From Fusobacteriaceae bacterium (GTDB lineage Bacteria > Fusobacteriota > Fusobacteriia > Fusobacteriales > Fusobacteriaceae): 64,000 bases of DNA. The position numbers were made by a program, and so were the translations under genes. Location: positions 1 to 64,000 of the forward strand of contig JAISTB010000012.1 of the NCBI GenBank assembly GCA_031272775.1, read 5' to 3'. Numbering within the stretch: position 1 is the first letter of the stretch; each line of letters opens with the position of its first letter. Positions 43,787 to 64,000 of this stretch are shown here, one piece after another. The notes under the pieces were generated by a model. That model was not told the origin of the DNA, did no database searches, and saw only the letters and a list, made by a program, of their open reading frames with translations.

Positions 43787-43871
43787 TGGTGCCTGAGAAG
43801 AGACTCGAACTCTTAAGCCTTGCGGCACCAGATCCTAAGTCTGGCGTGTATGCCAATTTCACCACTCAGGC
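43787..43871 (-). tRNA. tRNA-Leu (anticodon TAG)
   Basis: 85 nt with encoded CCA; acceptor GCCTGAG/CTCAGGC, anticodon stem CCAGA/TCTGG with loop CTTAGGA, long variable arm as expected for Leu. Last tRNA of the array. Confidence 0.95.
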
Positions 43872-43879
43872 AAATAAAA

Positions 43880-43955
43880 TGGTGCGTCATACAGGGATTG
43901 AACCTGTGACAACACGATTAAAAGTCGCGTGCTCTACCAGCTGAGCTAATGACGC
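43880..43955 (-). tRNA. tRNA-Lys (anticodon TTT)
   Basis: 76 nt with CCA; acceptor GCGTCAT/ATGACGC, anticodon loop CTTTTAA. Confidence 0.95.
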
Positions 43956-43958
43956 ACT

Positions 43959-44035
43959 TGGGGTGACTGACGGGGCTCGAACCCGCGCCAACCAGATCCA
44001 CAATCTGGCGCTCTACCAACTGAACTACAGTCACC
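43959..44035 (-). tRNA. tRNA-His (anticodon GTG)
   Basis: 77 nt; the extra 5' G (position -1) paired with C73 that marks tRNA-His is encoded; anticodon loop TTGTGGA; CCA encoded. Confidence 0.95.
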
Positions 44036-44053
44036 GTCTGAAAGTTATGAATT

Positions 44054-44129
44054 TGGAGCGGGAAACGAGGTTCGAACTCGCGACATTCAGCTTGGAAGGC
44101 TGACACTCTACCAACTGAGTTATTCCCGC
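44054..44129 (-). tRNA. tRNA-Gly (anticodon TCC)
   Basis: 76 nt with CCA; acceptor GCGGGAA/TTCCCGC, anticodon loop CTTCCAA. Confidence 0.95.
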
Positions 44130-44134
44130 AAAAA

Positions 44135-44211
44135 TGGTCGGAATAGCAAGGTTCGAACTTGCGACCCCCTGCTCCCAAGGCAGGTGCGCTACCTGGCTGC
44201 GCTATATTCCG
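44135..44211 (-). tRNA. tRNA-Pro (anticodon TGG)
   Basis: 77 nt with CCA; acceptor CGGAATA/TATTCCG, anticodon loop CTTGGGA. First tRNA of the array, directly after the promoter. Confidence 0.95.
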
Positions 44212-44313: not shown

Positions 44314-45051
44314 TCAACCCGTGCTCGCGTCCGTCCCGACGACGTCGACGGTCATTTTGATGTAGATGTCGGTTGTTTCGTTTTTGACGGACTTTCTGCG
44401 GAACAATTTTCCCAGCAGCGGCACATCGCCCAGTACCGGCACTTTGCTTTGAAGGTTGTGCATAATCGCGCGCTTGAGACCGCCGATAAAAATCGTCTCG
44501 CCGTTTTTGACGCGAATCGTGGTGACGACGGAGCGCCCGACTTTGGAGCCGCCCTCGGCGTTGTAGGTGCCCGTATCCTCGGAGGAGTTTTCCTTCCGGA
44601 GCTTGAAATTGCTGACTTCGATCTTGACTTTGAGCAGGATTGTGTCGTCGTCCTGGATAAAGGGTTGGACGTTGAGGATAATCCCCGCTTCCCGAAACAG
44701 CGGGGTGTAGGTTGTTTTTCCGGTTTCGTCGTTTTCATCCTTGGATTCCCCTACGATGACTTCTTCGGCGATTTTGAACTCTCCTGTCTCGCCGTCCGCG
44801 ATGAGAATCGAGGGAATGGCGCTAATGACAAGATCCTGATTGGCTTCCAACATGTGGAGGCCCACGCTCAGCATGTCTTTCCCGCCGCGAAACTGGCGGA
44901 CGAGCCCGAACCCGGCGGAGTAATTGGAGCCGAGGCCGTCGACGACGGCGCTTTTCAGCAGAGACGCGTTTGTTCCCCGGGCTTCGGTAATGCCTCCATT
45001 GCTGCTGTATACCCAGTCAAAACCGAGCTCTGTAAAGAGATTGTCGGACAA
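44314..45051 (-). pseudogene. Truncated secretin (GspD/PilQ-type), C-terminal domain only
   Basis: The frame encodes the C-terminal secretin domain of an outer-membrane channel (type II secretion or type IV pili): SAIPSILIADGE, FREAGIILNVQPFIQDDDTILLKVKIEVS, TTIRVKNGETIFIGGLKR and VPVLGDVPLLGKLFR. The N-terminal N0-N3 domains, signal peptide and a proper start are missing. Reading upstream, two in-frame TGA codons occur within five codons of the first residue shown, with only a TTG as start. The break coincides with the beginning of a 246-bp repeat array and is near the integrase, so the gene may have been cut by insertion of the element. Not likely functional as it stands. Confidence 0.8.
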
Positions 45052-45662
45052 AGTTCATCAGTTGGGATATATTGGCATCTTTCGGGGAAAAAATTATTCT
45101 TCTATCCAAATGAACATCCAAAGACAGCACTTTCTAATTTTCAACGTCCAAAGAAACCGACAAAAACCAAAATTTTTTCTTGATATATCTGCGGAAGATA
45201 AAGACGACAGGAAACTATTCTGTTCCCAGAAAAATTTGTTAACTGGGTCTCGCTTCATCTAATAAATAACGCAAATCAGGAACAGATTGTCGTGAAAAAT
45301 TCGTCAACTGCAGTAAATTGACTTTTTAGGATGCAAAAGACTTTCTTCCATCCAAAGGAACATCCAAAGACAGCTCTTTCCAATTTTCAACGTCCAAAGA
45401 AACCGACAAAAACCAAAATTTCGTCTTGGTATACCTGCGGAAGAAAAAAACGATAGACAATTTTTTCATTCTCAAAAAAATTTGTTTACTGGGTCTCGCT
45501 TCATCTAATAAATTATGTAAATCGTAAAGAGATTATCCTGCAAAACTCATCAACTGCATTAAATTGGCATTTCAGGACGCAAAAGACTTTCTTCCATCCA
45601 AGAGGACATCCAAATTATAGATTTCCAATCTCCAGCATTCAAAGAAACCATCAAAATCTTTT
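45030..45662. repeat. 246-bp imperfect tandem repeat, about 2.5 copies
   Basis: Corresponding positions recur at exactly 246 bp: AAGACAGC at 45121 and 45367, TGGGTCTCGC at 45244 and 45490, GCAAAAGACTTTC at 45333 and 45579. The phase extends into the secretin fragment: GTAAAGAGATT at 45032 recurs at 45524 (2 x 246). Copies differ at many positions, so the duplication is not recent. No intact frame runs through it; AT-rich with many CATCCAAA and CAAAGAAACC words. With the stretch 45663-45780 (AT-rich, nothing seen) it fills the space between the secretin remnant and the integrase gene. Confidence 0.8.
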
Positions 45663-45780
45663 TTCTCTGATCGCACACCTACATCAAAACAATTTTATCA
45701 AAACAAAATATTTGTCAATATAATGACTTGGTTTATTGAATTTTTTATAATTGGTCTGCTTTTTGATCAGCCATATTAAC

Positions 45781-47022
45781 TTACAAATTGAGTTTCATCA
45801 GTTCATTGATCATTTCCCGTTCTTTATGCGGGTATAAGTGACCATAGATTTTTTGTGTGATATCCGGACTTGCGTGTCCCAGTCTTTTCGCAATTAAGAT
45901 GACGTCCATATTCTTACTAATAAGTAAAGACACATGCGAATGTCTGAAATCATGGAGACGCACAAATTTTTTTGGATCTCCGGGGTATCCTCGGTTGCCT
46001 TTTTTTCCAATCTTTTGTGTTCCTTCAACTATTCCAAAGGCTTCACGTAGTGCCCAATTTTTTTGTCGTTCTATCTGATCTTTAGAACAAGGGAAAAGCC
46101 GGAATTGTGGATCAGGATCGACCAATCGATCAATATAAGTCTTCAATGAATCTTTTAGTGAAGGCGTAATTGCAATCTGGCGCTTTCCATTAACTGTCTT
46201 GGGGTCTTGAACAAGATCATGGCCAAATAACCTTATATATGTATGACGAACGTTGATTATGCTATTTTCCAAATCAACATCCATGACTCTCAGTGCCAAG
46301 AGTTCTCCAATTCGCATTCCTGTACCGAAGAGAACTTCAAAGATCAACTTGTATACACGCCCCATTGAAGTACTATCGTCAAATGCTGCGATAAAGGTCT
46401 TGAACTCATCTAATGTCAAAAAAGACATTTCATGCTGAGTTCGAGCAGTGCCCATGTGTTTAACATCACGAAGCGGGTTGACGGCAAGTTTTTTGATCTT
46501 GATTCCAAAGTTAAATATACCACTTAATATCGAGCTCATTGATCTAAGGGTTGTTTTTTCGTATGGTTGTCCAGTTTTGGCAGACAACTCTGTTCGTTTT
46601 CTCGTCTGCCATTCGATAATGTCGTAATTAGAAATCTTTGAAGCCACGTAATGACCGAAATCAGGCATTATATGATTTCTAACAAACACTTCCTTATTTC
46701 TTTGAACCCCCGGCCGAACTCTGCTCTTGGATTCAAGCAGAAATTTTTCGATCAATTCAGAAAACATGAAAGGCTTTACCAAACATCCGTTTTCTTTGAA
46801 TTCTTTTTCAAGCGCTTCAAGTTCATTTTTTCTTATCCGTTCGGCTTTTTCTGCTTCATCCTTCGTCAAAAAACCTTCTTTGGTGTATGCCTTCTTTTTT
46901 CCTGTCTCAGGGTTGAATCCTTGAAATTTATATCCCCAATTTTTTTTGCTTTTATTTTTCCTCTTTTTTTCATCAAGCAGTTTCTGATATGATTTTCTCT
47001 TGCTTATTTCGTATACTGGCAT
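45781..47022 (-). CDS. int: Tyrosine recombinase/integrase of the mobile element
   Basis: 413 residues. N-terminal arm-binding region rich in Lys/Arg (GYKFQGFNPETGKKKAYTKEG), SAM-like core-binding domain (about 85-190) and catalytic domain. The catalytic residues are present: Arg in GTGMRIGE, H-x-x-R in LHDFRHSH, His in GHASPD and Tyr in QKIYGH. Resembles integrases of integrative conjugative elements and phages of the Tn916 type. Its start lies within the end of the excisionase-like gene. Integrates and excises the element; the target is not identified. Base composition is more AT-rich than the chromosome. Confidence 0.93.
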   Translation of the reverse strand: MPVYEISKRKSYQKLLDEKKRKNKSKKNWGYKFQGFNPETGKKKAYTKEGFLTKDEAEKAERIRKNELEALEKEFKENGCLVKPFMFSELIEKFLLESKSRVRPGVQRNKEVFVRNHIMPDFGHYVASKISNYDIIEWQTRKRTELSAKTGQPYEKTTLRSMSSILSGIFNFGIKIKKLAVNPLRDVKHMGTARTQHEMSFLTLDEFKTFIAAFDDSTSMGRVYKLIFEVLFGTGMRIGELLALRVMDVDLENSIINVRHTYIRLFGHDLVQDPKTVNGKRQIAITPSLKDSLKTYIDRLVDPDPQFRLFPCSKDQIERQKNWALREAFGIVEGTQKIGKKGNRGYPGDPKKFVRLHDFRHSHVSLLISKNMDVILIAKRLGHASPDITQKIYGHLYPHKEREMINELMKLNL

Positions 47023-49421: not shown

Positions 49422-51965
49422 TTATGCAACCGAGAATACAGAATTACGAGAAATTTTCTTTTCTGTCTCATCTTCGGCAGCCATGAGTTTTTTTGTAAGT
49501 CGCAATATAATTTCCCCATTCAAGCTCTTGTAATCAAGCCACAGAGAATTGAATCGGTCAACATCAAATGTACCGTTTGGCTTTGTACAAGCCACTTTGA
49601 TCTCTATAGCCTTGGCCTGATCCTGTTTGCTGGAAGCCGCCACATAACAAAGCTCCAATTTGGAAAGCGCCAACTCAAAAAGTCGTGATCCTTCCGGATT
49701 CTTAAAATAATACTGTCTTTTGGGAATTGATAACGCAATTCTCGAAATTTCGGTTTCATTCAAGCCAAATCCAACATAGCTTTCCTTCTGGTCAAGTTCT
49801 TTTGCATTCGGATTCGGCAAAAAAATCTTTGTCGGACAATTATCCTTCAACGCAGAAAAAATCTTGGAATTTTTGGCATCACTGATTGACTGCGTGGCAA
49901 ACACAACAAAAGCATTTAATTTCCTGAATGTTTTAAGCCACCTTGATATCCTATGTTCAAACTTCGGATTTGTCAAAAACAGCCACGCTTCATCCAGCAC
50001 AATCATTGTGGGAAACCCTGTAAGAGATGATTCCAATTTGTGAAACAAATAATCCAGAGCCGGTGCAACCGCATTCTTTGATTCAGCCAACTTTTCCATT
50101 TCATAAACAGTAAATTTGGCAGCTCTGAATCTCTCGTTTGCTCCATCAAAATATTTTGCGTAAGTCCCAGAACCGCAATATTGGGCGAGCCCTTCGGCAA
50201 GTTTTGGATCAACACCGGCCAACAAAAACTTAAACGTCTTGATTGTCCTCTTCTCAGGATCATATTTTGCAAGACCAGTCAACGCCTCCCATATTTCTAT
50301 CTTCTTTTGAGGATCCAGAATCATATTTTGATCTTCCAACAGAGTTTCTATCCATTCTTGACACCATTCCCGCTCTTTCTCATCATCAACATTAATAAGC
50401 GGCTGAAAAGCAAGATCGTCATTTTCTCCCAGATCATAAAATTCACCACCGGCCGCATAAGCCAAAACTCTTGAAGATGCCCCCATATCGAATACGTACA
50501 CACGTGCCTCTTTATATCGCAGAAATTGAGCAATCAAAAGCTCCAAAAACACCGACTTACCAGAACCCGTTGGCCCGAACACCAAAGTATGCCCGACATC
50601 CCCAAAATGTAAGTTTAGCCGAAACGGCGTGTTTCCTGTCGTCTGACAATATACAAGAGGCGGTTCATTCAAATGCTTGTTTCTCACATTGCCAGCCCAA
50701 ATGGCCGAAGTTGGCAGCATATGAGCAACAGAAAAAGATGATATTGGCGGCCTTCTGTCATTAGATAAAATATTTCCAGGAATTGTTCCCATAAACGCCT
50801 CGACTGCGTGATAAGTCTCGACAACAGCTGTAAATCCAGCTGTATTGAGGACATTTTTTACAGTTTGCGCTTTCTTTAAAACCACATCCTTATCCCGATC
50901 AAATATCACAGCGGTAAGCGTATAATATCCTATTGAAATTGCGTCATTTTGCACATTCAACATTTCATCTTTGATTTCATGGGCTTTTATGACGGCATCT
51001 CTATCCACATTTGACGGCTGTTTTCCAGTCATTGCCGCAATCATAGAATCTTTGAAACTGTATCTTTTCCCAAACCAACGTTTCCATTGGGTATTGAGCT
51101 CTTTCAATGCAGTCAGTTTATCAAGCGGTATGAACCTTGTTACCAGACGATATTCCATATTGAGTGAATTAAGTGAATCAAGGATTCCCTCATACGAATC
51201 GGAGGGAAAATTCAGAATTGAAACAACCTTGAAATACCTTTCGCCGAGCATAGGCTCTAATCCAGTAACCAAGTCACAATCTGAGAGATAACTATCAAGC
51301 ATTTGAAAAGAGATTTTCGTATCCGGCACTGCAATCGGATGATCTTCATCCGAAACCGTTGAATGATAATATCTGATCTGTTCTTTCGATGTGAGAAGCG
51401 ACAATTTTGGGAAAACCGGGCTCAACATTTGTCTGATATTAGAGACTTCTTGCTTAAACTCCGTGAGATTTTCCATAAAGGTATCTTTGAGCTCATGTTC
51501 AGCGCTTGCTGTAAAGAAAATGTTATTCAGCTTCTTGATATTGTCTATTGGCGGAAAATATGAAATCGTAAGGTAATAATCAGATTCAAAATGAACGCCA
51601 GAAGAAAAGAAACTTTCCCTTTCTTTTTCAACGATAAATACCGGAATTTCTTTGATCCCTTTCGTTACCTGATAGGCATTTGCCTTGGATCGTCTCATTT
51701 CCACATGAAACGCCCAATTTTCATCAAGCCGTTTCAAAGCGTTATTCAGTATCTGGCTCATATTATCAAGCTCCCCTTGGGTTGAGCTTGCCAAATCTGC
51801 GCCTCTATACCTAAAAGTAACCTGAAACCCGCCTGCTTTATTAACCACAATTCCTTCTTCTTCGATGTAAGCCCATGGCAGGGCATGATAAAATCGTGCC
51901 CCCTTGGGTCTAAACTCCCGATAAACCACATCAGTTGTGGATTTTTCGTAATCTCTCCAAAACAT
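49422..51965 (-). CDS. virB4: VirB4/TrbE conjugation ATPase
   Basis: 847 residues. N-terminal region with LPWAYIEEEGIVVNKAGGFQVTF and YRGADL, typical of TrbE; Walker A GPTGSGKS near residue 465, Walker B IVLDEAWLFL and ATQS motif. Powers assembly of the type IV secretion channel and pilus at the inner membrane. AGGAGAAACG precedes the ATG. Downstream of virB3. Confidence 0.95.
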   Translation of the reverse strand: MFWRDYEKSTTDVVYREFRPKGARFYHALPWAYIEEEGIVVNKAGGFQVTFRYRGADLASSTQGELDNMSQILNNALKRLDENWAFHVEMRRSKANAYQVTKGIKEIPVFIVEKERESFFSSGVHFESDYYLTISYFPPIDNIKKLNNIFFTASAEHELKDTFMENLTEFKQEVSNIRQMLSPVFPKLSLLTSKEQIRYYHSTVSDEDHPIAVPDTKISFQMLDSYLSDCDLVTGLEPMLGERYFKVVSILNFPSDSYEGILDSLNSLNMEYRLVTRFIPLDKLTALKELNTQWKRWFGKRYSFKDSMIAAMTGKQPSNVDRDAVIKAHEIKDEMLNVQNDAISIGYYTLTAVIFDRDKDVVLKKAQTVKNVLNTAGFTAVVETYHAVEAFMGTIPGNILSNDRRPPISSFSVAHMLPTSAIWAGNVRNKHLNEPPLVYCQTTGNTPFRLNLHFGDVGHTLVFGPTGSGKSVFLELLIAQFLRYKEARVYVFDMGASSRVLAYAAGGEFYDLGENDDLAFQPLINVDDEKEREWCQEWIETLLEDQNMILDPQKKIEIWEALTGLAKYDPEKRTIKTFKFLLAGVDPKLAEGLAQYCGSGTYAKYFDGANERFRAAKFTVYEMEKLAESKNAVAPALDYLFHKLESSLTGFPTMIVLDEAWLFLTNPKFEHRISRWLKTFRKLNAFVVFATQSISDAKNSKIFSALKDNCPTKIFLPNPNAKELDQKESYVGFGLNETEISRIALSIPKRQYYFKNPEGSRLFELALSKLELCYVAASSKQDQAKAIEIKVACTKPNGTFDVDRFNSLWLDYKSLNGEIILRLTKKLMAAEDETEKKISRNSVFSVA

Positions 51966-51982
51966 TCGTTTCTCCTTTCTCC

Positions 51983-52210
51983 TTACGCTTCATATCGATC
52001 TTCATGCTTCATTGCCGCAAGAAAATGATCAAAAAACTTGGCGTCCTTTTTCGTAAGCCTCACAATCAGAATATGCGTAATGATAAAAATCGGAACAAGC
52101 CATACATTACCATAAAACATGCAAAATCCAATACCGGCATTTAAGATAACGGGAACACGAGCCCCGCCGGCTATAGTAACATCCGTTACAAGAGCTTTGC
52201 AAATTTTCAT
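51983..52210 (-). CDS. virB3: VirB3/TrbD inner-membrane component
   Basis: 75 residues. Short N-terminal part with KALVTDVTIAGGARVP, close to the VirB3/TrbD pattern, then one or two hydrophobic segments (about 20-50). Positioned directly before virB4, as in most systems. I chose ATG 52210; a GTG two codons earlier is possible. Confidence 0.85.
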   Translation of the reverse strand: MKICKALVTDVTIAGGARVPVILNAGIGFCMFYGNVWLVPIFIITHILIVRLTKKDAKFFDHFLAAMKHEDRYEA

Positions 52211-52216
52211 TCTCAC

Positions 52217-53152
52217 TTATACCACCTTCTCGACAATATAATTCTCATCCTTGTATCCAAAAACCGCAACAATCTCTTCGACGATCCTGCTTTTATCTTT
52301 TCGTCTGATAAAAATAACCAAATCTACCACATCGGAAATTGTCCTGCTTTGTGGATTTGCACTTACCTCAGATATATATTGCTCTAATTTCCGCAATCCG
52401 CCAATAACCGAATTTGCGTGAATTGTGCAAATTCCGCCCGGATGACCGGAATTCCAGGCTTTAAGCAAATCCAATGCAGCGCTATCACGAAGCTCTCCTA
52501 CCACAATGCGATCCGGCCGCATCCGCATGGCATGAGCGATCAAATCGCGGATTGATTTTGTTTCACTCGTTTTATAATAGACTCTATTTTCCCCGCAATA
52601 CTGCAATTCTTGCGTGTCTTCGATAATGATGATTCTCTCATGATAAGACGCCATTTCACGTAAAATAGCGTTGCAGAGCGTTGTTTTGCCCGATCCCGTC
52701 CCACCGACCACCAAAATATTCTTATGGTCTTTGACCGCTCTTTCGATTACAGCCTTTTGGCCTTCTGTCATGATTCCGCTTGCGACATAATCCGCAAGAC
52801 AAAACACTTTAATCGCCTTTTTGCGTATTGCGAACGTAGGAATCTTCACAATTGGCGGAATATCTCCATGAAACCGTTCCCCCGACAAAGGTAATTCCGC
52901 ATCAATTACCGGATTTTCCGGATTTACTACCTTATGCACATTGGAAGCAACAAGCCTGATTGCGTTTTGAGCATCATCCGGATCGACCAGCAACCCAGTA
53001 TCTGACATTCCAAAGCCCAGCCTGTCCACCCACAAATGCCCGTCATCATTGAGAAGTATATCAGTAACCTCCTCATCGGCCAGAAAAGTAAGTATCCCTT
53101 CACCCAGCGAATCTCTCAAAATATCCCGCAGATCAGTTCCCTTATCTGTCAT
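52217..53152 (-). CDS. virB11: VirB11/TrbB secretion ATPase
   Basis: 311 residues from ATG 53152 (GGGAGGAA upstream). Walker A VVGGTGSGKTT near residue 150, Asp box IIIEDTQELQ, RMRPDRIVVGELRD and GHPGGICTIHANS, all diagnostic. Hexameric ATPase at the channel base. Overlaps the upstream small gene by 11 bp. Confidence 0.95.
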   Translation of the reverse strand: MTDKGTDLRDILRDSLGEGILTFLADEEVTDILLNDDGHLWVDRLGFGMSDTGLLVDPDDAQNAIRLVASNVHKVVNPENPVIDAELPLSGERFHGDIPPIVKIPTFAIRKKAIKVFCLADYVASGIMTEGQKAVIERAVKDHKNILVVGGTGSGKTTLCNAILREMASYHERIIIIEDTQELQYCGENRVYYKTSETKSIRDLIAHAMRMRPDRIVVGELRDSAALDLLKAWNSGHPGGICTIHANSVIGGLRKLEQYISEVSANPQSRTISDVVDLVIFIRRKDKSRIVEEIVAVFGYKDENYIVEKVV

Positions 53153-53525
53153 TTCCTCCCACTCCCTCAGCACCCAAATCATCTTTTATGTAGCGCCTGA
53201 TCAGTTCTTGCAATTCCTTTTTTCTTGCTGGGCTTGCGATCCTATACCACCTGAAAGCATCACTTGCGTTGCAATCGAAAACGCGCTCCAACTTGGCCTT
53301 GTTTGAAGCTACCGCAAATTCCTTTTCAGCTCTCAGTTTTTTGGCACGTTCAGCGGCCAACTTTGCCCGTTTCCTTTCAGCTTCCAACTTTGCGTCAAAT
53401 AACGCCTCATCTTTGAGATCCAAAATCTCGTCCGTCTCTTCTTTCTCCATTTCCATCACATTCATCACTTCCTTTTCTTCGTCAATTCGTTCATCAAGTT
53501 CTTTTTTCTCTTTCAAAAATCCCAT
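53142..53525 (-). CDS. Small charged coiled-coil protein of the transfer operon
   Basis: 127 residues from ATG 53525 (AAAGGAG 9 bases upstream). The first 85 residues are almost entirely charged helix (ERIDEEKEVMNVMEME, KRAKLAAERAKKLRAEKE). The last 40 contain a compact part FDCNASDAFRWYRIASPARKKELQ. No family recognised. Between virD4 (beyond a repeat locus) and virB11, with which it overlaps, so it is translated with the secretion ATPase genes. Confidence 0.7.
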   Translation of the reverse strand: MGFLKEKKELDERIDEEKEVMNVMEMEKEETDEILDLKDEALFDAKLEAERKRAKLAAERAKKLRAEKEFAVASNKAKLERVFDCNASDAFRWYRIASPARKKELQELIRRYIKDDLGAEGVGGNDR

Positions 53526-53790
53526 TTTCATCAACTCCTTTCAAAACTTTTCACGCTGTTACTAAAACTTAATTTGAGATGCCTCCGGCGGGCCGTGAGC
53601 CACGACAGACATGGGTTAGCCGTGAGCCACGGCGGGCATTGGTTATGGCGGATCACGAAAGCCAGCAAACCCAGCTATCTCGCAATCACAATTATCAGCC
53701 GGATTCCCCGATCAGCTCACATCCGACGGTCACGCAGTGACCTCGGACGGGTACTGGAAACAACAAACTGGTGGACATTTCCACGAAACA

Positions 53791-53809
53791 TTTCACCCAT
53801 TGGGTGAAA
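53791..53809. repeat. CACCC-N3-GGGTG palindrome, copy in locus 2
   Basis: TTTCACCC-ATT-GGGTGAAA, inside the mosaic locus rather than next to a gene. Confidence 0.8.
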
Positions 53810-54143
53810 ACTTTCGAAGTAATTGCCTCCGGCGGCGGGGGCCCCCCCCGACGGCATTGGTTAGCCGGGAGCCCCGGCAGGCATAGATTCTGGCTGATTT
53901 CGAAAGTCAGCAGGAATCTTTTAATGATAGTCCATACCCCAAGAAAAATATCATGAGGGGGCCGCTGCGCTGCTGCTGGCCGAAGGCCAACCAACCTACA
54001 GTTGACCACCCCAAAAAAATCAGGGGAGCCGCCGCCGCTGCCAAGCCGGCCGGAGGCCGAACCAACAAAGTGACGTCCCCTCTCCCATGCCAGTTGGGGC
54101 GCCGGGGTCCTGGCTGGCATGGGTTATGTCCAAACCAAAAAAC

Positions 54144-54164
54144 TTTTCACCCATTGGGTGATAA
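54144..54164. repeat. CACCC-N3-GGGTG palindrome next to virD4 stop
   Basis: TTTTCACCC-ATT-GGGTGATAA, 7 bp after the virD4 stop. On the minus strand the hairpin is followed by AAAAGTTTTTTGG, so it may terminate virD4 transcription. Confidence 0.75.
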
Positions 54165-54170
54165 CTTTTC

Positions 54171-56138
54171 TCATGCTTCAAAATTAGACTCTTCGAAATA
54201 ATTATGTTCAACCCGATCAATTGTATCTTGAAATTTCCCGCCCCACCGGAGGCGTTCCAAATACCTTTCTTCGCGGTAATATCTTATTTTTTCTCCCCGG
54301 ATCGGGTGTTCTCCGGTAACAAAGATCAGTGTTTCATCGTTATCCATAGTCAGGATCTCATCAACCGTCATCAGGGATCTTGAAATATACGATTCGCTGT
54401 AATTGATCTTGGAAAACACAGAGAAAATACCCGAAAAGCTATGCGATTTCTGCATAACCGTCTTTTTCCCCAGCTTCTTTTCAATGAGCCCAGGGGTCTT
54501 ATCGTCATTAGGCGTGTAGAAAATGGAAATCCTGCAATTGGACAGGATGGAATTGTCTTTGGTATAGATGCTCGCCAGTTGATTGATATCCTGATAGATA
54601 ATAAAAGGCTTGATTCCATACCCTGCCACATAGGCCATGGCCTTTTCCAATAGCTCAATTTTACCCAAAGCAGGAAATTCATCTATTAGGAGTAGAAGCC
54701 TGTGTCTGTAGCTTGCACGTCCATCTTCGATTTTCATTTGCCTTGTATGGTGATAAATGATTTGTGTTATGATAAGTCGCATCAAAACTGCCGTATTGGT
54801 AAGCTCAGACGGAGGAATCACAAAATACAAAGAAATAGGCCTTTCATGATTCATCAAGTCATCTATTCTGAAATCAGAATCTTCTGTGTTTCGCATGATT
54901 GTCGGAAACCCAAAAGGCTGTAAATTAAGTATTGCGCTTGATATGATACCCGATCTCTCCGGACCCGGCCGACCCAGCATATCAAAACCAGTTCTTGCCG
55001 CAATAGGGTGTATCCTTGGCTTTTCTTCACCCATGGCATCTTTAACAACAGAACCATAGATCTCGTGAAAGAGATTGATATCAGCAGTGGTATTGTGATA
55101 AGCTTTCGTCATCTCTTTCATAGCAGCCTCTATCAAGGCTTCGCTTTCTTCGTCGTCGAAACCTTTGAAATTCGCGGGTTTTACGAAATTCAAAACATCG
55201 GCCAATGAGGCACATTCTTTATCTTTCACGACATAGAGAACATGGAGAATGACACCGGTCAAGAAATTGACGCCACTTGGGGCAAAGAACCCATCTTTAT
55301 CTTTTCCCGGTGCAATGATGATATTTGCAATCGCCATAGCATCTTGATATTCATAGACTGTCCCCTTTCTGATTTCCTGCAGTGGGTTATAATGACAGCT
55401 CACCAAATCTGTCGGCGCAAATTTCAGACAAAGTTGGCCCATTTTGCGCCTGTAAGCGCTGGTTATTTGCCAATTTTCCCCTTTGATATCGTTCACAATG
55501 ACCGAAGATTTCCATGTGAGCAACGTCGGGATAATTACCGACACCCCTTTTCCTGATCTCGTGGGCGCTCCAAGTGCAATAGGGTGAGGCTCCAAGTCAT
55601 AAAGTTCATGACCATAGAGATCGCGTCCGATTACAATACCATCAAGATCACGTTCAGGACGCCCGGCAAGGGTGACACTATAGACCTTATCTGTCCCAGC
55701 CTTTCGGAAAGAATCCCAAATCTCTTTCTTTGCCGGAAATAAAAGCATATTTCCGATCTCTTTTGTATTCGCAAAGCGGGCAGACCCATGGGTTGTGGGC
55801 TCTTCATTTTTCGAAAGCGAAAAAATCAATATTTCAGGCGTCAAAAATATCAACAGAAACAGACTTAACGATATCCCCACAGCAGCAGGCGCAGCCTTTT
55901 GATACCGGAACACCCAAAAGAATATCTGAAACGGGAAATAAAGATGGATATTCCCAATTTTCAGCCCCCAAAGATGCGGGTTATAATAGACGCACCGGGC
56001 AAAAATCTGTGTTGCGACAAGAGCCCCCACAAAAAAAGACGCCAAGATGATAATTGCCTCAACTTTTCTGTCATTCAGAGCTTCTTTGATTCCAAGCCTT
56101 TTGCACCTGTAAAAAAATCTTTTGACTGACTTAACCAT
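54171..56138 (-). CDS. virD4: VirD4/TraG coupling protein
   Basis: 655 residues. N-terminal membrane segments (about 25-110), then HGSARFA, Walker A GAPTRSGKG near residue 190, Walker B LLLIDEFPALG and a C-terminal region with GYGIKPFIIYQD. Brings the relaxase-DNA complex to the channel. The last 15 residues are acidic. Start taken as ATG 56138; a GTG at 56147 lies against the virB10 stop. Last of the virB8-9-10-D4 module. Confidence 0.94.
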   Translation of the reverse strand: MVKSVKRFFYRCKRLGIKEALNDRKVEAIIILASFFVGALVATQIFARCVYYNPHLWGLKIGNIHLYFPFQIFFWVFRYQKAAPAAVGISLSLFLLIFLTPEILIFSLSKNEEPTTHGSARFANTKEIGNMLLFPAKKEIWDSFRKAGTDKVYSVTLAGRPERDLDGIVIGRDLYGHELYDLEPHPIALGAPTRSGKGVSVIIPTLLTWKSSVIVNDIKGENWQITSAYRRKMGQLCLKFAPTDLVSCHYNPLQEIRKGTVYEYQDAMAIANIIIAPGKDKDGFFAPSGVNFLTGVILHVLYVVKDKECASLADVLNFVKPANFKGFDDEESEALIEAAMKEMTKAYHNTTADINLFHEIYGSVVKDAMGEEKPRIHPIAARTGFDMLGRPGPERSGIISSAILNLQPFGFPTIMRNTEDSDFRIDDLMNHERPISLYFVIPPSELTNTAVLMRLIITQIIYHHTRQMKIEDGRASYRHRLLLLIDEFPALGKIELLEKAMAYVAGYGIKPFIIYQDINQLASIYTKDNSILSNCRISIFYTPNDDKTPGLIEKKLGKKTVMQKSHSFSGIFSVFSKINYSESYISRSLMTVDEILTMDNDETLIFVTGEHPIRGEKIRYYREERYLERLRWGGKFQDTIDRVEHNYFEESNFEA

Positions 56139-56147
56139 AAGAATCAC

Positions 56148-57293
56148 TTACTTGGTGTAAGGTTCCAGGATCATATCCGAATGAACCGAAATATTGATCC
56201 GTGCCCCTTGTGCAATTTCAATCGTGGGTTGTCTACCAAGGGCTTTTTCCGCGAACGAGTTTCCAATCGTTACAATCTCTTCTCCGGCGCCATTTGTAGC
56301 CCTACCTTCCCATGATCTTTCATCGTTATCCATAATGGCCGCTGCCGCTCCCATGGCAGAAGCCAACACAACGCCTTTCAGCAATTGCGCAAAATGATTA
56401 TTCACTTTTCCGGTAAGCCCTGCTTTTCCTGTCAGATCAATGCCCTGCATATTTTCCAAATTGAGCGATGAACCATTCGGAAAAATTAACCGCTGCCAGA
56501 TCACAAGAAGCCTGTTTTGCCCAAAAGTAACGTTCGAATCATAGGTCCCAACTACACGCGTCCCTTGCGGAATCAAAAGAAAATTCCCCGTAACAGAGTC
56601 AAATACATTCTCACGAACCAAAGCCACGATGGTTTTTGCCGGAAGATCTGAATTGATTGCCGTCATCAAGACAGCCGGAATGAATGATCCGGCTTTCAAC
56701 TCATAGGGACTAATTGCAGGAATTGTGGTTGAACCAAGATAAAAATTTTGCGCTCGTTTCGATTCCAAGAATTTTACTTTGCTTCCTTGCCTGTTTTGGT
56801 CATAGTCTTCTGGCGACTGAGCCGCCCCGACATCTACAAGAGGACTGGGGGCGCCGTTACTTCGTCCCACGCTATTGAATGAAGGCGCTGCCTTTCTGGC
56901 CTGTTCAGATTCTTCCATGAACTTTCTCAAAAGTTCCTTCTTATATTCAGCCGTAGGATTCGCGTCAGCCGGGGCCATCCGGTAATCTTCCCGAAATTGA
57001 GACGCCGAAGGCTCCACTTTTCTTGTGAAATCTTTGACCTCAGGTATCGCTTCGTCCTCTCTATTTTCAGAATATGAAGCGAAAAAAGGATTTTCTGCCC
57101 TAATTTGCGTGTCCTCTTCCTTTGCGATACTGACATTGGCCTTTGATTTCCCGCTTGACGCTACAGTCACAATGGTTATTGCCGCAATCACCAGAAGCGG
57201 GACAAGGATAAAAACTTTTTTAACCTTCTTGGCTGAAGTATTTGCGTTTTGTGACCCGCCAACAGGTTGTGTTACGTTATTATTTTCTGCCAT
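56148..57293 (-). CDS. virB10: VirB10/TrbI channel protein
   Basis: 381 residues from ATG 57293. Short cytoplasmic N-terminus, one membrane helix (about 25-46, VFILVPLLVIAAITIVTV), a Pro/Ala-poor linker and the C-terminal TrbI domain: IPQGTRVVGTYDS, GQNRLLVIWQRLIFPNG and ARINISVHSDMIL. Spans both membranes and forms the outer-membrane pore with VirB9. Confidence 0.94.
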   Translation of the reverse strand: MAENNNVTQPVGGSQNANTSAKKVKKVFILVPLLVIAAITIVTVASSGKSKANVSIAKEEDTQIRAENPFFASYSENREDEAIPEVKDFTRKVEPSASQFREDYRMAPADANPTAEYKKELLRKFMEESEQARKAAPSFNSVGRSNGAPSPLVDVGAAQSPEDYDQNRQGSKVKFLESKRAQNFYLGSTTIPAISPYELKAGSFIPAVLMTAINSDLPAKTIVALVRENVFDSVTGNFLLIPQGTRVVGTYDSNVTFGQNRLLVIWQRLIFPNGSSLNLENMQGIDLTGKAGLTGKVNNHFAQLLKGVVLASAMGAAAAIMDNDERSWEGRATNGAGEEIVTIGNSFAEKALGRQPTIEIAQGARINISVHSDMILEPYTK

Positions 57294-57306
57294 TTTCTTC
57301 GCCCCC

Positions 57307-58233
57307 TTACCTTCGTACCCGCGACGCACTGTCAGCCCGTCTTGTATAAGCGCCTTTTCGCTTGATTACAACCTCTTTTTTGCCTAACTTCAATGTCGCA
57401 GCATCAAACAGCCTGTCAATTACGATCGTATTTTCATTCATTCTGGAATTTACGATAGCCAAGTTCCCAGTCTGCTCGTCTTTGATATAGACAACCGGAA
57501 TTTCTCTTGTCTTGACAGCTTCCCGCAAAATAATAAAAGTTTTTTCGCCATCATCAAATACCTGTTTTGGCGCGAAAAAGATTCGCTTGTTATTCCACTT
57601 ATACTCATAATTGAGCTTATCCAACGATACCTTTGTCGTTTGGCCTAAGGTCGTGGCTGCTTTATTCTGAAATTTCATCTTCTCATCTTGCGGATAGAGA
57701 AATCTAACTTCCGGGTTATACCAATCATTGGCCGCATGCAGGAAAAAATTATACGACCTCTTATTTGTGTTGACCACAAGATTCGTTTTGATCCCTGCCA
57801 AAAAAGGCTTCACGGCTACAATCTGCCGTTCACCCTCAGAAGATCCCGTTTTCCCAACATCAATGACCCATCTTGCTGTATCTCCACCCGCTGTATAGAT
57901 AATCTCTTCATCCGGATTCAAGTAAATCGTCGTGATAAACCCCGCCCGACAGTAAATCCGGTACATATCATCTTCGAAATAGACAAATCTCGTCGCAACT
58001 GATCGTTTCGCTTCTTTGATACCGCTTTTGATCTCCGGTTCTTTCATGGAATAATCCTTGTATTCGTTTCGGAGTTCTTCAGCAGCTTGATATTCCGCAT
58101 AAATATTGACCCCATATTTTTCAATTGATTGCTTTACCATTTCATCAGTAATCACAACTTCACTGGCATGACCCGGTATCGATAAGACCAACGCCATCAT
58201 AAAAAGCATGGCTAAATTCTGTAATTTCTTCAC
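57307..58233 (-). CDS. virB9: VirB9/TrbG channel protein
   Basis: 308 residues from GTG 58233, with AAAGGAGAG upstream. Signal peptide about 1-23. CagX-like domains: IYTAGGDTARWVIDVG (N-terminal) and NYEYKWNNKRIFFAPKQVFDDGEKTFI (C-terminal). Outer-membrane core complex. Between virB8 and virB10 in the usual order. Confidence 0.93.
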   Translation of the reverse strand: MKKLQNLAMLFMMALVLSIPGHASEVVITDEMVKQSIEKYGVNIYAEYQAAEELRNEYKDYSMKEPEIKSGIKEAKRSVATRFVYFEDDMYRIYCRAGFITTIYLNPDEEIIYTAGGDTARWVIDVGKTGSSEGERQIVAVKPFLAGIKTNLVVNTNKRSYNFFLHAANDWYNPEVRFLYPQDEKMKFQNKAATTLGQTTKVSLDKLNYEYKWNNKRIFFAPKQVFDDGEKTFIILREAVKTREIPVVYIKDEQTGNLAIVNSRMNENTIVIDRLFDAATLKLGKKEVVIKRKGAYTRRADSASRVRR

Positions 58234-58251
58234 TTCGATTCTCTCCTTTGC

Positions 58252-58941
58252 TTATAGCTCATGGTTATACGAAAAATCTTTGATCATAATTCCCAAGGGA
58301 TTAACCATGAGCGTCTTTTCATCAGTTGATTCTTTGATTTCAAATGTAAAAATTCCCGAAAATTTTTCTTTCTTCTCGACTGTCCCATTTTCGGCATACG
58401 ACACTTCTTCCCATCGGGCTTGATATGAGTTTCCTGACATTTTGAGTATTGTCGATAACTTGACTTCCCGTGACCGCTTGTTTTTGAAATACTCATTCAC
58501 ATTATCTGCCTGCATATAAGCATTCAGTTTCTGCTGGGCTTGCGGTGTCAGGAACAAATACTGTTTCTCAATATTTTGTCCAAACAGAACATAATCCAAT
58601 GGAACCGACCTCGTATCCTTGATATGCTGTCCCAAGACAGAAAAGATCATCTTATCCGAGGGTACATACTTCACGTGCGACAATTCCCCCACGTTTCGGA
58701 TAAGCCCTTCCTTTTCATCTACCAACACGACATACGGCTCAACATATACCCTGTTAGATAGCCTCACATAAGCCGCGAGCATGCCTGCAAGCATCACAAA
58801 CAAAACCAAACAGACCATCTGCCAGTTCCTTCGAGCCCGCGCCTGAATGAAAAGTTTATCGTAAAAGTGATCCTCACGAGGATTAATTTCTTTCCCTTTA
58901 TACAAGGCCCCCGCATGTGGATCATAATTCAAAGTAGACAT
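58252..58941 (-). CDS. virB8: VirB8/TrbF inner-membrane component
   Basis: 229 residues. One membrane helix (about 43-62) and a periplasmic VirB8/TrbF domain with YVEPYVVLVDEKEGL and YQARWEEVSYAENG. TAAGGAGTTGTC precedes the ATG. First gene of the virB8-9-10-D4 module; a repeat locus separates it from virB2. Confidence 0.92.
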   Translation of the reverse strand: MSTLNYDPHAGALYKGKEINPREDHFYDKLFIQARARRNWQMVCLVLFVMLAGMLAAYVRLSNRVYVEPYVVLVDEKEGLIRNVGELSHVKYVPSDKMIFSVLGQHIKDTRSVPLDYVLFGQNIEKQYLFLTPQAQQKLNAYMQADNVNEYFKNKRSREVKLSTILKMSGNSYQARWEEVSYAENGTVEKKEKFSGIFTFEIKESTDEKTLMVNPLGIMIKDFSYNHEL

Positions 58942-59493: not shown

Positions 59494-59844
59494 TCAGATC
59501 AACATCCCACCTGCATGACCAAAGAAAGAAGGTACCCAAGTTGCAGCGACAAAGCAGACCGCGATAGCAATGCAGATCTGCAAGAGTTTCTGAACGATTC
59601 CGCCCCCATGACCAAACATCAGACCCAGCATCAGCAAAATGACCGAAATGATTGATACCGTTCTTGCAGTAGGTCCTGCCAGATTATCCAATAACTTTTT
59701 AAGCGGCCCATCCCACGGCATCGACTCAGACGCCATAAGTTTTCTGCAAAGCACAACACCTAACCCAACCAAAAATAAAAAAAACATTTTCCAACGGATT
59801 TTACGTTGAGTCTTCCCATCATTCTCAACTTTTTTAATTTTCAT
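59494..59844 (-). CDS. virB2: VirB2/TrbC major pilin
   Basis: 116 residues from ATG 59844 (AAAGGAG upstream). Long positively charged leader, hydrophobic signal helix (about 20-35), cleavage probably near LMASES, then the TrbC pattern PWDGPLKKLLDNLAGPTART, two membrane helices around GLMFGHGGG, ending GGMLI. Sixteen-odd residues of the C-terminus match TrbC pilins well. Repeat locus 3 follows immediately, so this pilin gene is detached from the rest of the operon. Confidence 0.9.
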   Translation of the reverse strand: MKIKKVENDGKTQRKIRWKMFFLFLVGLGVVLCRKLMASESMPWDGPLKKLLDNLAGPTARTVSIISVILLMLGLMFGHGGGIVQKLLQICIAIAVCFVAATWVPSFFGHAGGMLI

Positions 59845-59892
59845 TTCGAAGCAACTCCTTTTAGTAAAATTTTTGCATAGCGCCATTACACG

Positions 59893-59905
59893 CCATTGAC
59901 AATGG
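59893..59905. promoter_or_regulatory. Palindrome in the virB2 leader
   Basis: CCATTG-A-CAATGG, 22 bp downstream of the -10 box, with a nearby direct repeat CGCCATT. Candidate operator for control of the transfer genes. Confidence 0.5.
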
Positions 59906-59926
59906 TTAATAATTGTGATATCATAT

Positions 59927-59955
59927 AATATACCATGGCAGTTAAACTTTGTCAA
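59927..59955 (-). promoter_or_regulatory. Sigma-70 promoter of the transfer operon
   Basis: Minus strand: TTGACA (59950-59955), 17 bp, TATATT (59927-59932). Confidence 0.85.
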
Positions 59956-60041: not shown

Positions 60042-60363
60042 CTCCGGCGGCGGGGGAGCCCCCCGACGGCATTGGTTAGCCGGGGGTCCCGGCAGGCATC
60101 GGTTATGGACTGATCGTAATAGCCAGCAGAATTTGACTATCCAGCATTCCCGATCCGCAGACTGATTCCAAACCAACTCACATCCGACGGTCACGCAGTG
60201 ATCTCGGCCGGGTACTGGAAACAACAAACTGGTGGACACTTCCACCCGCGAGCCGCTATTGGTGGGACACCTGATGTAGCCAATCGTAACTATCCCACTT
60301 TCACGATCAGCAAACGGATTCAGCATAACTTTACCCAAAAACTTTTCACCCAACGGGTGAAAA
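60042..60363. repeat. Mosaic GC-rich repeat locus 4
   Basis: Non-coding. Leading block CTCCGGCGGCGGGGGAGCCC (60042), B block CTATCCAGCATTCCCGATCC, conserved 70-bp block (60179-60245, with the GGTGGA-CACT-TCCACC hairpin), a divergent CTATCCCACTTTCACGATC block and a terminal palindrome. It occupies the divergent spacer between virB2 and the relaxase gene. Confidence 0.84.
60343..60363. repeat. CACCC-N3-GGGTG palindrome, copy in locus 4
   Basis: TTTTCACCC-AAC-GGGTGAAAA: arms conserved, loop changed from ATT to AAC, as expected if the pairing matters. Confidence 0.82.
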
Positions 60364-60376
60364 CTAAGATCTCAGT

Positions 60377-60520
60377 CCTTAAAAGAGACTTTTAAGGCAC
60401 GCTTACAAGTTTGCATAAAGCAAACTCTAAAACCTGCGTGAAATCCCGCCGAAATCTTCGGCAGGATTTGGGGTCAAGGCCTGCGGCCTTGAAAAAAGAT
60501 TTACCCCCCTTGGAGGGGGG
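60377..60520. other. Candidate origin of transfer (oriT): four hairpins before the relaxase gene
   Basis: In order: CCTTAAAAG-N3-CTTTTAAGG (60377-60397), AGTTTGC-N5-GCAAACT (60408-60426), AAATCCCGCCGAA-N3-TTCGGCAGGATTT with one mismatch (60441-60469), TCAAGGCC-N3-GGCCTTGA (60474-60492), and a further CCCCCC-N5-GGGGGG (60504-60520). The minus strand reads ATCCTGCC at the third hairpin, like the nick core of IncP-type origins. Position directly upstream of the relaxase gene is typical for oriT. The nick site itself is unproven. Confidence 0.5.
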
Positions 60521-60580: not shown

Positions 60581-62716
60581 GTGGCTGAATATAGACTTAA
60601 ATATAAGAAGGGCAAAGTTGGATCTGCCCGTCCTCACGCAATGTATATTTTGAGACAGGAACGCTACGCAGAACATGATGATCTTGTCCGTTTTGGATTT
60701 GGAAACTTTACTCCAAGCGACCGCATGTCAATTACCGATTTCTGGTTTTTGGCCGATTCTTTTGAGCCCGCAGGTTCAACAATCTACCGAGAATTTGAAG
60801 TCAATATCCCCGAAGAACTTAACCACGAGCAGGGGCATGAGCTGATTGAATCTTTTATCGCAAAAGAGATCCCCAACCAGCCTTATACTTACGCGATCCA
60901 TGAGAAGAACGGCCGACAACATTGTCACCTTATGTTTTCAGAACGATCCTTCGATGGAATCAAACGCGATCCCGCCACTTTTTTCAAAAAATATAATCGG
61001 TACCACCCTGACCAAGGCGGGGCCAAAAAGAATCCCTATTTCCATAGCAAAGAGGCACTTTTGCATTTTCGAAAGTCATGGGAACAAGAGCAAAACAGAA
61101 TCTTGCAAAAATACGGACACACCGCCAGAGTTGATTGCCGATCTTTATACGAAAGACGAAAGGAAGCTGTCGCCCAGGGCGACATGGAAAAAGTTGCCGA
61201 ACTCGACCGGGAAGCCGTCAACGTAGACGGGAACATCTACGCCAAAGTTAAATTCAAAGGAATCGAATCATTGACAACTACTGAACGCGACCAATGGGAC
61301 AGGTACCTCACGGCAAGCGAAGCCAAAAAAAGAAAGGAGAAAGGGCGTAACATAACCCCCAAACAAATCACCCCACAGCTTGACCTGAGCTCTACTCAGA
61401 TCAAAGACCGAATCTCCGAAATCGACGCTAAAGATTACGACAAGATCGCCTTGGGGGTGCTTTCTCATAAGAAATATCAAACGGCAACCGCAAACCTCAA
61501 AAGATTGAAAATCGATTTCGGCCATCTGGACGTCTTCGAAGCCAAACGCCAAGAATATGAATCTCAAATCAAAGAAATTGAAGCCTTTCGGGGAACTGGC
61601 AAGTATAACCAGCTGGTCTTTTTCCTCAAACGAGAAAACGAAACTGAAAAGAAAAGGCTTCAATCAATCCTTCATACCAAGTTTGGGATTGACCCTGCTC
61701 ATTTTTCTGCGACATCAGAAGATGAAGCTGCAACCAAGGCCGCCAGACAAAAGATTTTTGCCAGTTATGACGCCTACACACCTGAAAAGATCCGTATGGA
61801 GTACAGGTCTCTTTTATATAGGAATCCCAAAGAGGAAGCAACATATCGCGTGACCCAGTACCGAAACGAAACCCTCATATCAAACCTCTTGGCTTTGGAA
61901 TCCGATCTGGTAAGCTGTCAGAAATCTATCCTATCCACCAAAGACACGACGCAAAAAGAAAAACTTGCGGCCGATATATCTGCTATCAATTCCAAAATGC
62001 TTTTTATCACTCAGGAAAATATCCGGTTATCAGATACCATCAGCAGTCTCCGGCCTGAAATTGAAAAAGAAACCCAAAACCGCCAAACTGACATCGCTAT
62101 GCGTCTTGCTATAGCCCAAGAGATCTTGACCCAAAAGAACCTTGCACCCGAACCCCGTACCCCCGAAGAGATTATTCAGGATTACATCATGTGCCGATAT
62201 GAGCTTCATACAAAAAACAAGCTCTACAGTTATTTCGCTCAAAAGAACCAAACAGAAGGGTATAGCCGGCCGCTTTACCTGCTGCGTTCTGAAATCCAGT
62301 TCCTACAGGCCGATTACAAAAAAGTCCAGGCGTCGTTCCGAAACCTCAGCCCCGAAACGTCCAACAAGATTATATTTGCCCGTGAACGTACCGTCCATCA
62401 AGAATTGAAATCCATCAGACGCGAAATAAAAGATCTTTCCATTGGTCCCAAATCAGCCAGTACCGAAAAGGATCTTCTTACCTTACAAAAAAAGGCCCGC
62501 GAACTTTCGACCCTCGCAAATATCTACCATGATATCATTGTGCGGAAAGCCGAGCCAAAAATCAATCGACGCCTTGACATGATCCACAAATCTCATGCAG
62601 ACCCTGAAAAGCTCTACTTCAAAATGGCCGGGGCCCTCGATTTTACCGGAGAAAAAAAAGACAAGTCTCTCGAAATCAACTACCACGAATACGACGGCTA
62701 CGACCCCGGAATGTAA
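60581..62716 (+). CDS. MobA/MobL-like relaxase
   Basis: 711 residues, GTG start with AAAGGAGCCG upstream. N-terminal relaxase domain (about 1-200): candidate catalytic tyrosines Tyr22 and Tyr30, YREFEVNIPEELNHEQG, and the metal-binding H107 and H114-C-H116 in YTYAIHEKNGRQHCHLMF. The remaining 500 residues are charged and helical, probably coiled coil; no helicase motifs seen. It nicks oriT and leads the strand into the recipient. Divergent from the virB genes, next to a TraD-like gene. Confidence 0.88.
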   Translation: MAEYRLKYKKGKVGSARPHAMYILRQERYAEHDDLVRFGFGNFTPSDRMSITDFWFLADSFEPAGSTIYREFEVNIPEELNHEQGHELIESFIAKEIPNQPYTYAIHEKNGRQHCHLMFSERSFDGIKRDPATFFKKYNRYHPDQGGAKKNPYFHSKEALLHFRKSWEQEQNRILQKYGHTARVDCRSLYERRKEAVAQGDMEKVAELDREAVNVDGNIYAKVKFKGIESLTTTERDQWDRYLTASEAKKRKEKGRNITPKQITPQLDLSSTQIKDRISEIDAKDYDKIALGVLSHKKYQTATANLKRLKIDFGHLDVFEAKRQEYESQIKEIEAFRGTGKYNQLVFFLKRENETEKKRLQSILHTKFGIDPAHFSATSEDEAATKAARQKIFASYDAYTPEKIRMEYRSLLYRNPKEEATYRVTQYRNETLISNLLALESDLVSCQKSILSTKDTTQKEKLAADISAINSKMLFITQENIRLSDTISSLRPEIEKETQNRQTDIAMRLAIAQEILTQKNLAPEPRTPEEIIQDYIMCRYELHTKNKLYSYFAQKNQTEGYSRPLYLLRSEIQFLQADYKKVQASFRNLSPETSNKIIFARERTVHQELKSIRREIKDLSIGPKSASTEKDLLTLQKKARELSTLANIYHDIIVRKAEPKINRRLDMIHKSHADPEKLYFKMAGALDFTGEKKDKSLEINYHEYDGYDPGM

Positions 62717-63587: not shown

Positions 63588-64000
63588 ATGACGGCTACCC
63601 AGAGAAAGAAACTCAAACAGATAGTGTCCCTGAAAAAGAGGACACAAGCCTTGAAAAATCAAGAGAAATCAGCTGAACGGCAGGCCAAACGCTTGCGAAC
63701 CAAAAAACTCATTCGTCTGGGCCTTCTTTGTGAGTTGACAGGCATAATATACCTTCCGCAAGAGCTTGTACTTGGGCATTTGATGAATTTCAACCGCACC
63801 TTTACCCCCACCATGATAGATGAAGGCAAACGAATCTTCGAGTCCCTCGACCAATACGACTCAACCAAGGCCAATTCCCTCACAACGGACGACCGCCGCC
63901 ATCGTAACCATGACCTTATCACCTTTGGAGCCCTATTCGAGATCGCAAACCTCGACAAACCCCTCAACGTCTTGGCCGGATACCTTACCCAAATCACAAC
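63588..64000 (+). CDS. TraD-like conjugal transfer protein, N-terminal part
   Basis: Open frame from ATG 63588 to the window end (137 codons). Basic N-terminus (TQRKKLKQIVSLKKRTQ), then RLRTKKLIRLGLLCELTGI, which matches the start of the small TraD family of IncP/Ti-type transfer regions (RTRRLIQLGGLVEKAG), and further on DLITFGALFEIANLDK. An insertion of about 50 residues separates these two parts compared with the family I recall. TraD-like proteins accompany relaxases. Confidence 0.65.
   Translation, partial: MTATQRKKLKQIVSLKKRTQALKNQEKSAERQAKRLRTKKLIRLGLLCELTGIIYLPQELVLGHLMNFNRTFTPTMIDEGKRIFESLDQYDSTKANSLTTDDRRHRNHDLITFGALFEIANLDKPLNVLAGYLTQIT

What the first reader, a model, noticed from the sequence alone, without database searches (positions are those of the whole stretch)
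60377..60520. Candidate oriT: a ladder of hairpins before the relaxase gene
Four inverted repeats plus a C6/G6 pair are packed in 144 bp between the divergent virB2 and relaxase genes. The third has ATCCTGCC on the minus strand, the IncP nick-core word, although the relaxase looks MobA/MobL-like, a family usually paired with another nick sequence. That mismatch is itself of interest.
Basis: partly seen in the sequence, partly recalled or inferred. Interest (0 to 1): 0.6.

Follow-up and report, generated by a model that had tools for sequence, protein, structure and literature searches.

The report
RSF1010-type transfer origin in Fusobacteria
The stretch is almost certainly the site where a mobile element of a Fusobacteriaceae bacterium is cut to start its transfer into another cell; the cut is of the kind expected for its cutting enzyme, and it falls exactly between two abutting DNA hairpins, a layout shared with well-known plasmids such as pSC101.

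Summary
The hairpins are real, far beyond chance, and very probably an origin of transfer (oriT). The relaxase is a MOBQ/RSF1010-type MobA (best solved relative R1162 MobA, E 1e-27). The same hairpin-plus-word recurs in 40 divergent site clusters (Fusobacterium, Leptotrichia, Enterobacteriaceae, Paracoccus). ATCCTGCC occurs 138 times in this genome, and ATCCTG in none of the other 54 related sites, so the IncP 'mismatch' disappears.

The 'ladder' is a conserved layout. The transferred strand folds into three abutting hairpins C|A|B with no base between them, and nic is the A/B junction. A helix starts exactly at +1 in 25 of 40 clusters, against 1 at -1 and 7 at +2; arm sequences and loop lengths vary widely, so structure rather than sequence is conserved. 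I found no description of this +1 hairpin in the open literature searched. The element resembles an integrative conjugative element (integrase, virB/virD4 operon, mobA, TraD-like partner). Nicking and transfer are inferred, not shown.

The parts
60377..60397 (-). Hairpin B: CCTTAAAAG-tct-CTTTTAAGG on the minus strand, beginning at the first nucleotide (+1) of the predicted transferred strand
   Evidence: positional counterpart of unrelated sequence in most relatives
60397..60398 (-). Predicted nic: minus strand GTAAGCGTG/CCTT, cut between 60398 (3' OH) and 60397 (5' end)
   Evidence: Ungapped alignment to the RSF1010 substrate in PMC4814116; conserved in relatives. Nick position inferred, not mapped
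60398..60440 (-). Hairpin A, core: outer stem CACGC/GCGTG (60436-60440 with 60398-60402) and inner stem AGTTTGC/GCAAACT (60408-60414 with 60420-60426); its 3' side holds the nic word
   Evidence: outer stem covaries among relatives
60441..60469 (-).
   Evidence: counterpart ends exactly at CACG in 18 of 27 relatives
60460..60467 (-). ATCCTGCC word: chance resemblance to the IncP nick core
60474..60492 (.). Fourth inverted repeat TCAAGGCC/GGCCTTGA; role unknown
60504..60520 (.). C6/G6 hairpin CCCCCCT-tgg-AGGGGGG; terminator-like on the minus strand
60581..62716 (+). mobA, MOBQ relaxase of 711 aa; Tyr22 and His107, His114, His116 on the conserved positions
63588..64000 (+). TraD-family (PF06412) gene, likely relaxosome partner; runs on to 64106 of the contig
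59494..59955 (-). virB2-like pilin gene, divergent from mobA
49422..58941 (-). Transfer operon: virB4, virB3, virB11, virD4, virB10, virB9, virB8 (in coordinate order)
   Evidence: same order on F. polymorphum pKKCOM1330A
45781..47022 (-). Tyrosine integrase of the element
   Evidence: tRNA genes at 43787-44211

Best explanation
This is the oriT of an integrative conjugative element, cut by its own MOBQ relaxase MobA in the RSF1010 manner. MobA recognises hairpin A and cleaves the minus strand after GTAAGCGTG, between 60398 and 60397, staying on the 5' C. The transferred strand therefore runs leftwards: virB2 and the transfer operon enter first, mobA last. The strand folds as three abutting hairpins C|A|B with nic at the A/B junction. 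I infer that A and B, extruded together in supercoiled DNA, help to open the DNA at nic for cutting, and that in the transferred strand they bring the two ends together for rejoining. Shown here: the sequence, its conservation and its covariation. Inferred: nicking, transfer, and the roles of B and C (about 0.5 that they act as structures in single-stranded or cruciform DNA).
For: Relaxase is closest to R1162 MobA (2NS6, E 1.2e-27) with catalytic residues aligned. The nic core aligns ungapped to RSF1010 with the same spacing and matches 9 of 12 of the MOBQ consensus. It recurs in Fusobacteriaceae upstream of MobA homologs; 40 hits in 96 genomes of the order, 0 for the reversed control. A helix starts exactly at +1 in 25 of 40 clusters, shuffle mean 2.5, maximum 8; folding puts a helix junction exactly at nic in 19 of 41, at most 4 at any other offset; hairpin C abuts the core in 18 of 27. 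The window folds as C|A|B with no base between. Integrase, transfer operon and TraD-like partner are present.
Against: No nicking or mobilisation data. About a third of the related sites lack a helix of 5 bp or more at +1. A 38-bp R1162 oriT is functional (from memory), so B is not strictly needed there. No VirB6, VirB5 or VirB1 was recognised in the operon, and the element ends were not found.
Confidence: 0.9

Rival explanations
1. IncP-type nick: the relaxase cuts at ATCCTG/CC in the third repeat on the minus strand, as TraI of RP4 does.
For: The 8-letter word is present at 60467-60460 and a hairpin (60474-60492) lies 5' of it.
Against: The relaxase is MOBQ, not RP4-TraI-like. ATCCTG is in 1 of 55 sites. 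The word occurs 138 times in the genome. The distance from hairpin end to cut would be 12 nt, against 8 in the RP4 substrate. The word lies in a stem.
Confidence: 0.03
2. The hairpins are only transcription terminators or leader elements of the divergent virB2/mobA promoters, not an oriT.
For: The C6/G6 hairpin and the 60343-60363 palindrome score as minus-strand terminators.
Against: A, B and C were not found as terminators. The core word is also conserved in small plasmids with other neighbours, and in some Leptotrichiaceae genomes lies beyond the relaxase gene.
Confidence: 0.05
3. It is an oriT, but hairpins B and C are double-stranded binding palindromes for the TraD-like accessory protein, which diverge to give each element its own specificity, as IR2 and SmpO do in pWBG749-type oriTs.
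For: A TraD-family gene lies next to mobA here and in several relatives. Arms diverge quickly. SmpO precedent: PMC8136818.
Against: Arm length (3-12 bp) and loop length (3 to more than 50 nt) vary while pairing is kept, which a dimer with fixed half-site spacing would not tolerate.
Confidence: 0.25

Closest known systems
RSF1010/R1162 oriT and MobA (MOBQ, IncQ1)
   Same: Hairpin 5' of nic, 11 nt from AAAC to nic, TAAG.G.G/C word, relaxase family; an interrupted hairpin from +1 (CCC TC CCCTAC AAA GTAGGG TC GGG, read)
   Different: Nic word GTAAGCGTG instead of GTAAGTGCG; uninterrupted 9-bp hairpin B; hairpin C directly abutting; mobA beside a virB operon
pSC101 and related enterobacterial MobA/TraD plasmids
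   Same: TAAGTGCG/C core, outer stem, 9-bp hairpin from +1 in pEn_MCR4 and Yersinia relatives, the same sequence visible in pSC101 /CCCTGATAA...TTATCAGGG, TraD partner
   Different: Mobilisable only; TraD gene is on the other side of oriT
F. polymorphum plasmid pKKCOM1330A
   Same: Same transfer gene order, virB2/mobA divergence, GTAAGCGTG/C core and +1 hairpin
   Different: A plasmid rather than a chromosomal element; hairpin arms unrelated in sequence
pSK41/NES oriT
   Same: TAAGTGCG/C core after a hairpin; 3-bp hairpin /CCC-TTAC-GGG from +1
   Different: Distant relaxase, very short hairpin B
RP4 (IncP, MOBP) oriT
   Same: Only the ATCCTGCC word
   Different: Relaxase family, geometry and conservation all differ

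Membership tests
MOBQ relaxase | MobA_MobL domain with motif I tyrosine and HUH histidines | tested here: met
   PF03389 E 1.9e-19; 2NS6 E 1.2e-27 with Tyr22, His107, His114, His116
MOBQ oriT | Inverted repeat followed by a TAAGTGCG/CCCT-like nic at fixed spacing | tested here: met
   9 of 12 consensus letters, spacing identical to RSF1010
MOBQ oriT | Site-specific nick by the cognate relaxase | not testable with these tools
   Needs purified protein or primer extension
IncP (RP4) oriT | RP4-TraI-type MOBP relaxase | tested here: not met
   Relaxase is MOBQ
IncP (RP4) oriT | Conserved ATCCTG/C nick core 3' of a hairpin at RP4 spacing | tested here: not met
   Word in 1 of 55 related sites; 12 nt instead of 8 from hairpin to cut
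Integrative conjugative element | Integrase, relaxase and transfer apparatus together | tested here: met
Integrative conjugative element | Flanking att repeats and excision | tested here: inconclusive
   Right end lies beyond the contig end at 64582; no second copy of the 45000-45800 stretch

The most novel reading that the evidence does not exclude
MOBQ origins of transfer have a general, so far undescribed part: a hairpin that begins exactly at the first nucleotide of the transferred strand, so that nic is the junction of two abutting hairpins. It is kept by structure rather than sequence from Fusobacteria to Proteobacteria and acts in opening nic or in rejoining the ends.
Probability: 0.4. 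Interest if true: 0.6.

Novelty: new member of a known kind. Interest (0 to 1): 0.45.

Why it matters
It removes an apparent relaxase/nick mismatch and supplies a defined oriT for Fusobacteriaceae, where a plasmid with the same module is typed 'non-mobilizable' (pKKCOM1330A). The hairpin-junction rule gives a simple, testable criterion for locating nic in MOBQ elements, and raises the question of what a hairpin at the very 5' end of the transferred strand does in starting or ending transfer.

Tried and rejected
The IncP nick reading was rejected. MAFFT alignment of the cores and the covariance model built from it were not useful: hairpin arms misaligned and only 4 pairs were modelled, so positional helix profiles and folding were used instead. 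The scan of all genome contigs with GAAACNNNTAAGCGTGC returned mostly chance hits, kept as a negative control. Relaxase peptide scans of genome and viral contigs found nothing. Viral contig scans with the core pattern gave one canonical core word, without a +1 helix, and no convincing site. The second GTAAGCGTGC in the genome (C33) lacks this architecture. A search for a second copy of the integrase-side end found none.

Full report
Observation. With arms of 7 bp or more there are four in 144 bp against 0.10 in dinucleotide shuffles (0 of 2000 reach four); the next best stretch elsewhere in the window has two. The minus strand folds at -43.4 kcal/mol as DNA, z = -9.8. The left gene is a VirB2-like pilin and the right gene a MobA/MobL relaxase.

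Setting. The window is contig 12 of a genome whose same-family relatives hold contigs matching in length and match position named plasmids of Fusobacterium varium, Ilyobacter polytropus and Cetobacterium somerae, hence Fusobacteriaceae. GC is about 53% up to 44 kb and 40-48% beyond. At the change lie five tRNA genes (43787-44211), then a tyrosine integrase. Then come MipA, virB4, virB3, virB11, virD4, virB10, virB9, virB8 and virB2, all leftward, and mobA rightward. A TraD-family gene lies further right. The same gene order occurs on F. polymorphum plasmid pKKCOM1330A, which MOB-suite calls non-mobilizable. The set reads as an integrative conjugative element; its ends were not found.

The relaxase. 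Its best solved relative is R1162 MobA (2NS6, E 1.2e-27); Tyr22 and His107, 114 and 116 fall on the conserved positions, and the staphylococcal nicking enzyme (4HT4) is second. It is therefore MOBQ.

The nick. On the minus strand the second repeat reads AGTTTGC-TTTAT-GCAAACT-T-GTAAGCGTG/CCTT. It aligns without gaps to the RSF1010 substrate GTTTCTCGAAGAGAAACCGGTAAGTGCG/CCCT (PMC4814116), with 11 nt from AAAC to nic in both. The MOBQ consensus is TAAGTGCGCCCT (PMC3832669); the window matches 9 of 12. Beside MobA homologs of Fusobacteriaceae the word GCACGCTTAC or a near variant plus hairpin recurs. The degenerate core gives 40 hits in 96 genomes of the order and none for the reversed control. 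In this genome the exact word is found twice, here and at one place without the architecture. ATCCTGCC occurs 138 times, and ATCCTG in none of the other 54 sites.

The ladder. I collected 55 distinct nic sites (40 clusters below 70% identity over the first 40 nt) and read them as transferred strand. A maximal helix of 5 bp or more starts at +1 in 25 clusters (22 with 6 bp or more), against 1 at -1 and 7 at +2, with up to 11 at positions further in; shuffles give 2.5 on average and never more than 8. Arms are unrelated, for example CCTTAAAAG, CATTTTTATTTT, CACTCC, CATGGTATAA, CTTTCC, CCCTGATAA and CCTTCCGT, and loops run from 3 to more than 50 nt. As a control, 113 chance copies of the word without the core hairpin have such a helix in 14 cases, 12%. 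Folding each site, without choosing helices, puts a closing/opening junction exactly at nic in 19 of 41, at most 4 at any other offset. pSC101 has the complementary arms /CCCTGATAA...TTATCAGGG, although its own minimum-energy fold is a different one, and pSK41 a 3-bp version /CCC-TTAC-GGG. RSF1010 has an interrupted version (/CCC TC CCCTAC AAA GTAGGG TC GGG, my reading). On the other side a third hairpin ends exactly where the outer stem CACG begins in 18 of 27 relatives. The outer stem covaries: CACGC/GCGTG, CACGG/CCGTG, CGCAC/GTGCG, CGCGC/GCGCG. In the window the 93 nt 60469-60377 fold as three hairpins with no unpaired base between them, z = -8.1.

How it works. The conserved core and the relaxase identity make oriT secure, about 0.9. 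Cleavage between 60398 and 60397 implies leftward transfer with the virB operon first and mobA last. For hairpins B and C, wide variation of loop length with pairing kept argues for a structure in single-stranded or cruciform DNA rather than a fixed protein palindrome. Assisting strand opening at nic, or joining the ends after transfer, are my inferences. The rival is recognition by the TraD-like partner, by analogy with SmpO and the diverging IR2 of pWBG749-type oriTs (PMC8136818).

Literature limits. The open-access papers found and read in part describe the hairpin 5' of nic. None of the passages I read mentions a hairpin starting at +1 in MOBQ; PMC6856555 on MOBQ4 plasmids contains neither 'hairpin' nor 'inverted repeat' in its main text. 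Older R1162 and pSC101 papers in subscription journals could not be read, so the novelty of the +1 hairpin is unproven.

Noticed in passing
48590, 48612, 53790, 54144, 59229, 60343 (window) and 64469 (contig): A 21-bp palindrome TTTTCACCCA(A/T)YGGGTGAAAA has seven places, all inside the element and none elsewhere in the 2.09-Mb genome (up to 2 mismatches). It looks like an element-specific operator or repeat; one copy sits just left of oriT.
   Followed up: partly
48.1-48.6, 53.6-54.2, 59.0-59.5, 60.0-60.4, 62.7-63.4 kb: Composite dispersed repeats (families D1-D13) fill most of the wider intergenic gaps of the transfer region, while the corresponding genes on pKKCOM1330A are tightly packed.
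   Followed up: partly
45035-45526: Tandem duplication of 246 nt (79% identical) between the integrase and a secretin-domain ORF (44314-45051), overlapping its 5' end; a possible integration scar.
   Followed up: no
L074 (Leptotrichiaceae genome G084, contig C23, about 1489-1596): Two oriT cores on the same strand 91 bp apart, each followed by its own +1 hairpin.
   Followed up: no
L012, L018, L024, L025 (Leptotrichiaceae): The oriT core is not directly upstream of the relaxase start but some hundred bases or more away, apparently on the far side or upstream at a distance.
   Followed up: no
related sites: The base after the closing G of the +1 hairpin is A in 21 of 26 sites with a helix of 5 bp or more, often GACT, GATT or GATA; RSF1010 (GGGATTG) and pSK41 (GGGATTT) fit too.
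   Followed up: partly
pKKCOM1330A (NZ_CP084160.1): MOB-suite types this plasmid as non-mobilizable although it carries mobA, an oriT core and a virB/virD4 operon.
   Followed up: yes
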